Positions 43,847-46,401 of a stretch of 64,000 nt of DNA are shown here, in pieces. Source of the stretch: Halapricum desulfuricans (lineage in GTDB: Archaea > Halobacteriota > Halobacteria > Halobacteriales > Haloarculaceae); contig NZ_CP064791.1 of NCBI RefSeq assembly GCF_017094465.1, forward strand, positions 682,001 through 746,000, read 5' to 3'. Numbering within the stretch: the first letter of the stretch is position 1; every line of letters starts with the position of its first letter. Made by a program: the position numbers and the translations under genes. The notes below the pieces were generated by a model, which ran no database searches, was not told where the DNA came from, and saw nothing but the letters and a program-made list of their open reading frames with translations.

Positions 43847-44050
43847 TCAGACGTCGAAAACGACGTACGCCCGCCAGCCGTCGGCCACCGGCTCCAGTTG
43901 CATTTCGGAGTAGGTAACGGCTTTCACTTCGCGAGCGGTGATCGACGACAGCGGGACGCCCCGTGCGCTGGCTTCTACCGTCCAGCCCTCGTCGGTCTCT
44001 CGGATTGTAGCCTCGTTTTCGATCGGGAGAACAGCTCTGACGTCTCGCTG
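43847..44050 (-). pseudogene. Archease, C-terminal half (gene split by IS605 element)
   Basis: Encodes QRDVRAVLPIENEATIRE to the end AYVVFDV (67 residues), matching the second half of archease including the conserved C-terminal Asp. Archease activates the RtcB RNA ligase that joins tRNA exons. The other half is at 46195-46401. Joining codon TAC (46195-46197, minus strand) directly to CAG (44050) gives a continuous 136-aa archease in frame. A 44116 start of the local frame reads through element sequence and is not biological. Confidence 0.88.
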
Positions 44051-44150
44051 GTGAACCGCCTCGGGGTCAAGCCCCGAGGCTTCCCGTGGGTTAGTCGGAC
44101 ACTCCCACGATACCATCGGTCTGATAACCTCGAACGGAATCGTGGGTCAC
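44051..44150 (-). ncRNA. Probable omega RNA (TnpB guide scaffold 3' part)
   Basis: On the minus strand the end of tnpB and the element end form the conserved scaffold finish GGAAGCCTCGGGG, CTTGA, CCCCGAGGCGGTTCAC, a GC-rich 8-bp hairpin followed by the element boundary. Sense-overlapping RNAs of IS1341-type genes are known in haloarchaea, and TnpB uses such RNA with the flanking DNA as guide. Here the guide would start CAGCGAGACGTCAGAGC from archease. The 5' end of the RNA is not visible; 44150 is nominal. Confidence 0.6.
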
Positions 44151-45368
44151 GGTCGGGGCGTCCACGGCCCCCGATGCCTGCCGTCGCACCTTCCGCACGG
44201 TGGGAAGGCTGTTGAGAGCAGGCACATTCCAATCCTGATGATTCTTGATACCTTTCACGGCGATATTCACGCTTGCACCACGGTCGCTGTGGTCTTGATG
44301 CCCGCACGACCGACACTTGAACCGCTTCTTGTTGCGGTTCGCTCGTTCGGCGTGCCCGCACAGCGGACACCGCTGGCTCGTCTTGTACGGGTCAATCCAT
44401 CCAGTCGGAATCCCCTCGAACGACGCCTTGTACGACGTATAGAACTGAAGGGCGCGAAACGGGAGGTGGTGCAAGCGTCGGTTCATCCGCGTGCCGTAGT
44501 CGATACTGTCGCGCATCTCTTTGAGGTCTTCAAAGACGATGCACGGCGTCTCGAACTGACGGCTCCATTCCACAATGTGACGACTCACCTTGTGGAGTCG
44601 GTCGCGGACAAACCGTTCCTCACGCCCTTCCAGCACGTCGTGGATACTGTCTTTCCCCGCGTTCTGAACGCGCTTCCGCATCGTGAAGTAGCGGTGGCGC
44701 TCGAACTTGATTTCGGGGAAGTCGATGACCAACGTGTCTTTGACGCCAGTCTCGGAGAGCGCGGTGAGGGCCACGTTGTCCTCGTTCACGTCCACGCCGA
44801 CGACTGTTCGTGAGTCCTGCTTGTCCCGAACGGTCTGCTCGGTGTTGGTGACGTTGACGTGCAACTCGGGGGTGTCGTTGTGGAACAGTGCTTCTGCCGT
44901 CCCAATTTTCCACTCGTCGCTTTCGAGTGCTGTTTTGAGAATGTCGAGGTGGGCGTCGTCGCCTTCGAGAACGCCCGTGACGTGCTTGTACGGCTTCGCG
45001 CTGATGCGGAACGCTACATCACCGTTGTCGGTAAGCGACAGGTTGTACCCTTCCTCGTAGTTCGCCCGGAGCGGGTACGCGCCGTCCTTGGTGTGACTCG
45101 GCTGACCGAAGTCGTCGTACTCGTAGTAGTTCTCCATCGCGCCGAGTGCTTTGGCGACGACGCGCTGTGTCGTGTTTTTCACGAGGTCGGCGTCGTCGGC
45201 CACGCGGTCGGGAATGGTATCCCAGTTCACGCCTTGCTTGGCGAGACGGATGGTTTCGTTGTACACCGACCGCGCTTCGAGGGTGGCATCGTACAGCAGG
45301 CTCTCGTTGTCACTCTGGATGTTGAGTTGGAAGTCCAGCGTCTTGACGAGAGTCTGTGAGTCGGTCAT
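44091..45368 (-). CDS. tnpB: TnpB RNA-guided nuclease, IS200/IS605 family
   Basis: A 425-aa protein, apparently intact. The RuvC-like catalytic residues are Asp193 (GVDVNEDN), Glu280 (VFEDLKEM) and Asp362 (SDRGASVNIA), and the zinc finger is CPLC (334-337) and CRSC (352-355). TnpB proteins cut double-stranded DNA next to a TAM guided by omega RNA from the element end, which preserves the element at its donor site. Its start overlaps the DUF2080 gene stop by ATGA. The C-terminal 50 residues after the zinc domain overlap the omega RNA. Confidence 0.94.
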   Translation of the reverse strand: MTDSQTLVKTLDFQLNIQSDNESLLYDATLEARSVYNETIRLAKQGVNWDTIPDRVADDADLVKNTTQRVVAKALGAMENYYEYDDFGQPSHTKDGAYPLRANYEEGYNLSLTDNGDVAFRISAKPYKHVTGVLEGDDAHLDILKTALESDEWKIGTAEALFHNDTPELHVNVTNTEQTVRDKQDSRTVVGVDVNEDNVALTALSETGVKDTLVIDFPEIKFERHRYFTMRKRVQNAGKDSIHDVLEGREERFVRDRLHKVSRHIVEWSRQFETPCIVFEDLKEMRDSIDYGTRMNRRLHHLPFRALQFYTSYKASFEGIPTGWIDPYKTSQRCPLCGHAERANRNKKRFKCRSCGHQDHSDRGASVNIAVKGIKNHQDWNVPALNSLPTVRKVRRQASGAVDAPTVTHDSVRGYQTDGIVGVSD

Positions 45369-45520
45369 TCTTCGTCTTGTTCGGCGGGTTCTGAGGTTCG
45401 GACGACTTTCACGTCGGCTCCACGCCAGCGTTTGGGGACGGTGACGTGGGCGCTGTTCCCGAACGGTTTGACTTCGCCGTCGAGAACTTCCTCGCCGTCG
45501 ATTTCAAACCGGTTCCCCAT
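45365..45520 (-). CDS. DUF2080 family transposon-associated protein
   Basis: A 51-aa protein, MGNRFEIDGEEVLDGEVKP then FGNSAHVTVPKRWRGADVK, typical of the small SpoVT/AbrB-like DUF2080 proteins that precede tnpB in haloarchaeal IS605/IS1341 elements. It shares ATGA with tnpB, so the two are translationally coupled. It probably acts as an element-encoded DNA-binding regulator; inference. The promoter, TATACTTAA-like, is near 45534-45550 between it and tnpA. Confidence 0.85.
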   Translation of the reverse strand: MGNRFEIDGEEVLDGEVKPFGNSAHVTVPKRWRGADVKVVRTSEPAEQDEE

Positions 45521-45573
45521 ACCTGTGTATATCCTTTGGATATACTTAACTGTGTCGGTGGAGTGGGTTCGAT

Positions 45574-46026
45574 ATGGGCGAAAAGCGGTCGAACCACACG
45601 GTGTACAACGTCAACTGCCACTTCGTGTGGTGTCCGAAGTACCGACACGCCATCCTCGAACCAATCGAGGACTCGTTGGAAGCAAGTTTCCGCGACGTGT
45701 GCGACGAGTACGGCTACGAGATTCTGTCGTCGTCCGAAAATCGGAGATTTTCGTGATCACGAGAGACGAAGTCTCTCGAACGACTCCACATCTCTCCTGA
45801 CCACGTACACCTGTTCCTTTCCGCCCACCCGAAGCACGCGCCGAGCGAGATTGTGCGAACGGTCAAGAGCATCACGGCGCGGGAGATGTGGGAACAGCAC
45901 GAGTCGTTCTTGGAGGAGTATCTGTGGGTTGGCGGATTTTGGGAGGAATCGTACTACGTTGGGACGGCAGGCGATGTTTCGACCGACACGATTGAGCAGT
46001 ATATTGAGCGCACGGAACACGTTTAA
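45574..46026 (+). pseudogene. tnpA: tnpA (Y1 transposase) interrupted by a 54-nt stop cassette
   Basis: Encodes MGEKRSNHTVYNVNCHFVW and on to YEILS, then a 54-nt insertion with an in-frame TGA (45754-45756). The original frame then resumes with LHISPDHVHLFLSAHPKHAP to IEQYIERTEHV. The HUH motif (HVH) and the catalytic Tyr (IEQY) lie in the second part, so the first product of 60 aa cannot be active. Removing the insert gives a 132-aa protein, normal for Y1 transposases. The element is thus probably immobile by itself. Confidence 0.88.
45730..45783 (+). repeat. Twin-hairpin insertion inside tnpA
   Basis: Two perfect 19-nt hairpins, 45735-45753 (CGAAAATC/GATTTTCG, loop GGA) and 45760-45778 (CGAGAGAC/GTCTCTCG, loop GAA), separated by TGATCA. 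Length 54 is a multiple of three, so the downstream frame is preserved while TGA is introduced. The first hairpin matches two hairpins at the element's left end except for compensated base-pair changes. Confidence 0.85.
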
Positions 46027-46057
46027 CGGGGCTTACGGCCTTCACCCTCGGGGTCAA

Positions 46058-46166
46058 GTGGTTCGAGAATCGGAGATTCTCGTCATCTGCTCACGGCGCT
46101 TGCGCCGTTCGCAGGTTCGTGGGACTTCGTCCCACGCCCATCACGGAAATCTCCGATTTCCGTACG
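46058..46166 (+). repeat. Four-hairpin cluster in the element's left-end hairpin
   Basis: Hairpins at 46064-46082 (CGAGAATC/GATTCTCG, loop GGA), 46093-46108 (ACGGCGC/GCGCCGT, loop TT), 46118-46136 (CGTGGGAC/GTCCCACG, loop TTC) and 46143-46163 (ACGGAAATC/GATTTCCGT, loop TCC). The last two carry the reverse-complement loops of the GRA type, meaning they sit in the opposite orientation. The whole cluster occupies the loop of the CTCGGGGTC/GACCCCGAG outer stem. Confidence 0.85.
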
Positions 46167-46194
46167 ACCCCGAGGCACTCGGCCTGCTCCGCCT

Positions 46195-46401
46195 GTAGAT
46201 AAGTTCGTCGAGATAATCAAAGAGCAGCGCCTCCCGGGACTCGGCCGTTCGAGTCAGTTCGAATCGGTCTCCCTTCCCGGGCGGCTCGTCGTACATCGCG
46301 GCAGCGAGACCGTCAGCGACCGCCCCAAAGACCGCATCGATCGTCTCCCCAGTGGCTTCGACGGCGATGTCGGCCGTATGTTCGCGCAGTTCGTAGCTCA
46401 T
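46195..46401 (-). pseudogene. Archease, N-terminal half (gene split by IS605 element)
   Basis: Encodes MSYELREHTADIAVEATGE up to DYLDELIY (69 residues), containing the conserved EHTAD metal-site segment. The reading continues into the element as RRSRPSASG before stopping. It begins 4 bp after the DUF502 gene stop, so the original operon was DUF502-archease. See 43847-44050 for the other half. Without excision, no functional archease is made from this locus. Confidence 0.88.

What the first reader, a model, noticed from the sequence alone, without database searches (positions are those of the whole stretch)
43847..46401. Archease gene cleanly split by an IS605-type element
The halves at 46195-46401 and 43847-44050 join at codon 69/70 into a 136-aa archease with nothing lost or duplicated. 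Archease stimulates multiple-turnover RNA ligation by RtcB. In this genome that help is missing unless another copy exists, the element excises, or RtcB works without it. No target duplication fits single-strand IS200/IS605 insertion after CTAC.
Basis: partly seen in the sequence, partly recalled or inferred. Interest (0 to 1): 0.72.

Follow-up and report, generated by a model that had tools for sequence, protein, structure and literature searches.

The report
Archease gene split by IS605 element
In one salt-loving archaeon a selfish DNA element has landed exactly inside its only archease gene, the helper of the RNA-joining enzyme RtcB, and comparison with relatives suggests the cell survives because another RtcB-type enzyme can do without that helper.

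Summary
In a near-complete Halapricum-type haloarchaeal genome (99.6% complete, 2 contigs) the only archease gene is cut between codons 69 and 70 by a 2,144-bp IS605-group element (tnpA and tnpB divergent). The halves join without gap to 136 aa, colinear with intact archease in four congeners. All 12 related element copies in the genome lie directly 3' of TCTAC, and nothing is duplicated or lost. No second archease exists.

The cell must still ligate tRNA: its only detected tRNA-Trp gene has a 105-nt intron. It keeps an intact canonical RtcB and also a divergent RtcB with its catalytic motifs. Across 146 family genomes, archease never occurs without canonical RtcB. Twenty-seven near-complete genomes lack both, and all 20 of those checked keep the intron in tRNA-Trp. 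So a divergent, probably archease-independent RtcB is the likeliest backup. Eight more have canonical RtcB without archease.

The element's tnpA has an in-frame stop from a hairpin insert, but a sibling with intact tnpA and identical right end could excise it in trans. Its intact TnpB would be guided to the empty archease site, favouring retention. The halves show purifying-selection rates, so the insertion is recent. It is an ordinary insertion making an informative natural knockout.

The parts
46195..46401 (-). archease N-terminal half, codons 1-69 (strand 1, strand 2 with H8 and D11, helix 1, strand 3, most of helix 2)
   Evidence: Pfam PF01951 positions 1-70, 56.5-59 bits; alignment to congeners; secondary structure from a model of the H. 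hydrolyticum ortholog
43847..44050 (-). archease C-terminal half, codons 70-136 plus stop (end of helix 2, strands 4-7, with K112, D135 and the C-terminal carboxylate)
   Evidence: Pfam PF01951 positions 68-136, 44.8-47 bits
44051..46194 (-). IS605-group element, 2,144 bp; left end at 46194, right end at 44051; inserted 3' of TCTAC
   Evidence: ends shared with 11 other copies; empty site in four congeners
44091..45368 (-). tnpB, 425 aa, reading frame intact; RuvC-type residues (motifs GVDVNED, FEDLKEM, SDRGASVN) and four zinc-finger Cys present
   Evidence: NCBIfam guided_TnpB 130.6 bits over a cut-off of 100; PDB 9nzp TnpB alignment; motifs
45574..46026 (+). tnpA (Y1 HUH transposase) interrupted by a hairpin insert with in-frame TGA; probable pseudogene
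   Evidence: PF01797 in two pieces, one TGA inside; alignment to intact sibling
45730..45783 (+). 54-bp hairpin-cluster insert inside tnpA
   Evidence: ends uncertain by a few bases
46058..46165 (-). about 108-bp cluster of four hairpins in the loop of the left-end palindrome (SMR-A-like)
   Evidence: absent in the sibling element, 92-97% shared with small non-coding copies
44051..44084 (-). right-end palindrome GGAAGCCTCGGGGCTTGACCCCGAGGCGGTTCAC, expected 3' scaffold of the omega-RNA
   Evidence: identical in the sibling element; upstream stem covaries between the two
44031..44050 (-). expected omega-RNA guide CAGCGAGACGTCAGAGCTGT, which is archease codons 70 onward; expected TAM TCTAC
   Evidence: position relative to the right end; inference from ISDra2 (PMC8612924)
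43847..44116 (-). 89-aa open frame joining 22 codons of element right end to the archease C-half, starting with an ATG inside the 3' end of tnpB
   Evidence: translation not shown
45365..45520 (-). 51-aa DUF2080 transposase-associated protein upstream of tnpB
   Evidence: NF033496 68 bits

Best explanation
An IS605-group element inserted as single-strand circle DNA 3' of TCTAC in the only archease gene of this Halapricum-type archaeon and almost certainly abolished archease. Shown: the break is exact; no other archease is present; D11/H8 lie on one half and K112/D135/the C-terminus on the other, so neither half has the whole metal site; the split lies inside helix 2; the halves show no sign of decay. 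Inferred: the loss is recent. It is tolerated because exon ligation of the single intron-containing tRNA-Trp is carried by the divergent RtcB and/or by the canonical RtcB working slowly without its activator. The intact TnpB, whose guide would read into archease codon 70, is expected to cut any archease allele lacking the element and so to help it occupy all chromosome copies, even though its own TnpA is broken.
For: Exact insertion and colinear intact orthologs in four congeners. Single archease, canonical RtcB 546.8 bits and a second RtcB. Canonical RtcB is full-length and matches P. horikoshii RtcB at 551 bits; the divergent RtcB keeps DVGCG, GGGNHF, IHSGSR and HGAGR. Only detected tRNA-Trp has a 105-nt intron. 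In 146 genomes: both canonical RtcB and archease 98, canonical only 13, archease only 0, neither 35; at 90% completeness or more 74/8/0/27. A haloarchaeal archease profile confirms absence in the sampled negatives while finding the weak g6 archeases. All 20 'neither' genomes tested keep an intron-length tRNA-Trp. dN/dS of the joined halves against the three close congeners is 0.09-0.12, like intact pairs. Metal-site residues D12, D141 and the C-terminus, plus H9 and K117, are needed in P. horikoshii archease (PMC3973293). E. coli RtcB works without archease (PMC10630183, PMC5333776). TnpB intact, omega-RNA stem covaries, guide matches the empty site for 14 nt with TCTAC in three congeners.
Against: No expression, growth or ligation data. 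Each half could be expressed (the C-half has its own in-frame ATG) and could in principle reassemble. The genome assembly shows one state only; haloarchaea are polyploid and minor empty copies cannot be excluded. Whether the divergent RtcB ligates tRNA is inferred only from co-occurrence. Other RNA ligases (e.g. Rnl3 type) were not searched for.
Confidence: 0.72

Rival explanations
1. Archease is restored in part of the population: TnpA of the sibling element excises the insertion precisely in trans, so the polyploid cell keeps a few empty, working archease copies.
For: An intact sibling TnpA exists at C1:1287467-1287826 with identical right end and near-identical left end. Small copies carrying the same hairpin-loaded left end have spread to several TCTAC sites, so such ends appear mobilisable. 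Excision of these elements is precise in known cases (PMC8612924).
Against: No empty-site sequence in the assembly. TnpB of this element would be expected to cut the emptied site and restore the element (PMC8612924, PMC11870625).
Confidence: 0.12
2. Canonical RtcB of this lineage no longer needs archease at all, so the gene was already dispensable before the insertion.
For: Genus g3 (7 genomes) and G086 have canonical RtcB without archease. Some RtcB enzymes are archease-independent (PMC5333776, PMC10630183).
Against: All four near-complete congeners keep intact archease under purifying selection. The joined halves show conservation like intact genes. Archease tracks canonical RtcB across the family. 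g3 genomes also carry further RtcB paralogs.
Confidence: 0.12
3. A split archease: the two halves are made separately (the C-half from an ATG at the 3' end of tnpB on the same transcript) and fold together into a working protein.
For: Both halves are open frames without decay; the C-half frame runs in phase from an ATG at 44116; dN/dS unchanged.
Against: The cut is inside helix 2 and splits the metal site; extra tails on both halves; no ribosome-binding or promoter evidence; a recent insertion explains the lack of decay equally well.
Confidence: 0.03
4. Assembly error.
For: None found.
Against: Near-complete two-contig genome; the element copy is only 89% identical to its closest sibling, so misjoining is unlikely; all family copies obey the same TCTAC/TTCAC boundary rule.
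Confidence: 0.01

Closest known systems
IS605 group of the IS200/IS605 family (H. pylori IS608; haloarchaeal IS605-type elements of Natronomonas and Haloquadratum)
   Same: Divergent tnpA and tnpB, subterminal palindromes, no target duplication, insertion 3' of a fixed short target
   Different: Target TCTAC instead of TTAC; left-end palindrome loop filled with a hairpin cluster; tnpA broken by a similar cluster; sits inside the only archease gene
ISDra2 TnpB-omegaRNA (PMC8612924) and TnpB gene drive on plasmids (PMC11870625)
   Same: Intact RuvC-type TnpB, right end followed by host sequence as guide, target motif doubles as expected TAM
   Different: Activity not tested here; the guided site is a conserved host housekeeping gene on a chromosome
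SMR-A small mobile repeats and PATEs of Haloquadratum walsbyi (PMC3119063)
   Same: About 110-bp insert inside a near-terminal palindrome; transposase-free copies with IS605-type ends
   Different: Here built of tandem 7-8-bp stems with 3-nt loops; one insert lies within tnpA
Archease of Pyrococcus horikoshii (PDB 4n2p, PMC3973293)
   Same: Fold and metal-site residues (H9, D12, K117, D141 correspond to H8, D11, K112, D135)
   Different: Gene interrupted at codon 69/70, so the two parts of the metal site are on separate pieces

Membership tests
IS200/IS605 family, IS605 group | Y1 HUH TnpA | tested here: met
   PF01797 over cut-off; this copy has one in-frame TGA in an insert, sibling intact
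IS200/IS605 family, IS605 group | TnpB with RuvC-type residues and zinc finger, divergent to tnpA | tested here: met
   guided_TnpB 130.6 bits, motifs, opposite strands
IS200/IS605 family, IS605 group | Subterminal palindromes at both ends, no terminal inverted repeats | tested here: met
   CCTCGGGG...CCCCGAGG near both ends
IS200/IS605 family, IS605 group | Insertion 3' of a fixed short target without duplication | tested here: met
   12 of 12 copies 3' of TCTAC; empty sites in congeners
IS200/IS605 family, IS605 group | Single-strand circle transposition by TnpA | not testable with these tools
   inferred from family knowledge
RNA-guided TnpB | omega-RNA from right end with host-derived guide, TAM equals target | tested here: inconclusive
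   right end identical and upstream stem covaries with sibling; guide and TCTAC found in empty sites of congeners; no RNA or cleavage data
Archease | PF01951 over the full length, with metal-site carboxylates | tested here: met
   only for the joined sequence; each half covers about half the profile
SMR-A small mobile repeat | About 110 bp, inserted in near-terminal palindrome of an IS605-type element | tested here: met
   108 bp in the left-end palindrome loop
SMR-A small mobile repeat | Prominent terminal inverted repeats of its own | tested here: inconclusive
   internal hairpins seen; outer repeats not clearly defined

The most novel reading that the evidence does not exclude
A TnpB-bearing selfish element has driven a null allele of the RtcB activator archease through a polyploid archaeal chromosome. 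The cell survives because haloarchaea carry a divergent, archease-independent RtcB that can act as the tRNA-splicing ligase, the same enzyme that alone serves relatives lacking both archease and canonical RtcB.
Probability: 0.35. Interest if true: 0.65.

Novelty: new member of a known kind. Interest (0 to 1): 0.47.

Why it matters
It is a natural knockout of archease in an organism that must splice tRNA-Trp. Together with the family-wide pattern (archease never without canonical RtcB; many genomes with only a divergent RtcB and an intron in tRNA-Trp) it makes the question of which RtcB enzymes need archease in vivo directly testable in culturable haloarchaea.

Tried and rejected
A second archease in the genome: none. 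Divergent archease hidden in 'negative' relatives: a haloarchaeal profile found only weak partial matches (E 0.03 or worse); the best one (G044) lies in a reading frame that does not resemble archease over its length. Archease next to rtcB in canonical-RtcB, archease-negative genomes: no tblastn match in G086, G044 and G040 neighbourhoods, positive control G082 found. Decay of the archease halves: none seen. Second genomic target for the expected TnpB guide: no exact copy; the element's own junction differs from the TAM at two positions. Laying the whole genome for scripts was not available. The 2015 RtcB-archease coevolution paper (PMC4604427) was not held; its content is taken from a review.

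Full report
What is there. The window lies in contig 1 of a two-contig haloarchaeal genome (2.88 Mb, 99.6% complete). The closest named archease is Halapricum hydrolyticum, 89% identical. The congeners read TCTAC directly followed by CAGCGAGACGT at the site, so the empty site is exactly reproduced with nothing lost or duplicated.

The element. Between the halves lie 2,144 bp with tnpB on the minus strand, tnpA on the plus strand and a small DUF2080 gene. A sibling (89% identical over tnpB and right end) with intact tnpA and tnpB lies at C1:1285939-1287899. Ten further short copies share the ends. All 12 copies follow TCTAC, and all but degenerate ones end in TTCAC. The chance of TCTAC at a given position is about 0.00066. 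In the archease copy a 108-bp cluster of small hairpins fills the left-end palindrome loop and a 54-bp cluster interrupts tnpA with an in-frame TGA. Inserts of about 110 bp in the near-terminal palindromes of IS605-type elements are described in Haloquadratum as SMR-A, and the short transposase-free copies as PATEs (PMC3119063).

TnpB. It is 425 aa, with RuvC-type D/E/D motifs and four zinc-finger cysteines. The right end is identical to the sibling's, and a stem upstream of it keeps pairing through several changes between the two copies. By analogy with ISDra2 (PMC8612924), the guide would be the first bases of the archease C-half and the TAM would be TCTAC. The guide matches the empty site of three congeners for 14 nt and of the fourth for 11 nt. 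The own junction carries TTCAC instead of TCTAC. A TnpB drive in multicopy plasmids is reported (PMC11870625). Extension to a polyploid haloarchaeal chromosome is inference.

Effect on archease. A model of the H. hydrolyticum ortholog (pLDDT 88.9) places the break inside the second helix, residues 56-74. Residues needed in P. horikoshii archease (H9, D12, K117, D141, C-terminus; PMC3973293) fall on different halves. The N-half gains a 17-residue tail ending in a stop; the C-half can only start from an ATG in the element. Loss of function is therefore most likely. The joined halves have dN/dS 0.09-0.12 against the three close congeners, like intact pairs, so the insertion is probably recent.

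Does the cell need RNA ligation? The only tRNA-Trp among 45 tRNA matches has a 105-nt intron. The genome has a canonical RtcB, intact and 551 bits to P. horikoshii RtcB, and a divergent 482-aa RtcB with the catalytic motifs. Not all 45 matches were resolved: one (L249) was not called by ARAGORN, and an intron-bearing elongator tRNA-Met may have been missed.

Family-wide test. Among 146 genomes of the family: archease with canonical RtcB 98, canonical RtcB alone 13, archease alone 0, neither 35. At 90% completeness or more: 74, 8, 0, 27. Genomes are not independent, but the 'neither' state appears in several genera (g2, g4, g6, g7, g11), some of which also hold genomes with both. The 'neither' genomes carry the divergent RtcB (except G105, 52% complete), and all 20 of them tested keep an intron-length tRNA-Trp. 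In 40 of 70 genomes with both genes on one contig they lie within 6 kb. So archease follows canonical RtcB, and a divergent RtcB seems to suffice alone in many relatives. The seven g3 genomes and G086 show that canonical RtcB without archease also occurs; G086 is only 90% complete.

Conclusion. The most likely account is a recent, ordinary IS605 insertion, tolerated through the divergent RtcB and/or slow canonical RtcB, with TnpB favouring retention. What is shown: sequence, co-occurrence, introns. What is inferred: enzymatic backup, TnpB activity, fixation in all chromosome copies.

Noticed in passing
window 46058-46165 and 45730-45783; loci L173-L182, L188: Clusters of tandem 7-8-bp hairpins whose 3-nt loops vary (GGA, GAA, TTC, TTT, AAA) while stems stay paired; 11 of 12 genomic sites of the first hairpin are in left ends of this element family, one is inside tnpA.
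   Followed up: partly
146 genomes of the family: Archease never occurs without canonical RtcB; 27 near-complete genomes have neither and rely on a divergent RtcB while (20 of 20 tested) keeping an intron-length tRNA-Trp.
   Followed up: yes
genus g3: G038-G044: Seven genomes have canonical RtcB plus further RtcB paralogs but no detectable archease.
   Followed up: partly
L173:538-714: A short copy of the same element family, of roughly 175 bp, appears to interrupt another protein-coding frame (SLPEFY / HHQTISPDGSQVAFYYDENG), also directly after TTCTAC.
   Followed up: no
window 43847-44116 (-): The element's right end supplies an in-phase ATG and 22 codons to the archease C-half, overlapping the 3' end of tnpB.
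   Followed up: no
G003, G067, G070, G075 and others: Many canonical RtcB genes match the profile only from about position 40-50 and lie in open frames of about 1,000 aa, suggesting inteins.
   Followed up: no
L177, L178, L179: Three near-identical non-coding elements of about 450 bp with the same ends (PATE type).
   Followed up: partly
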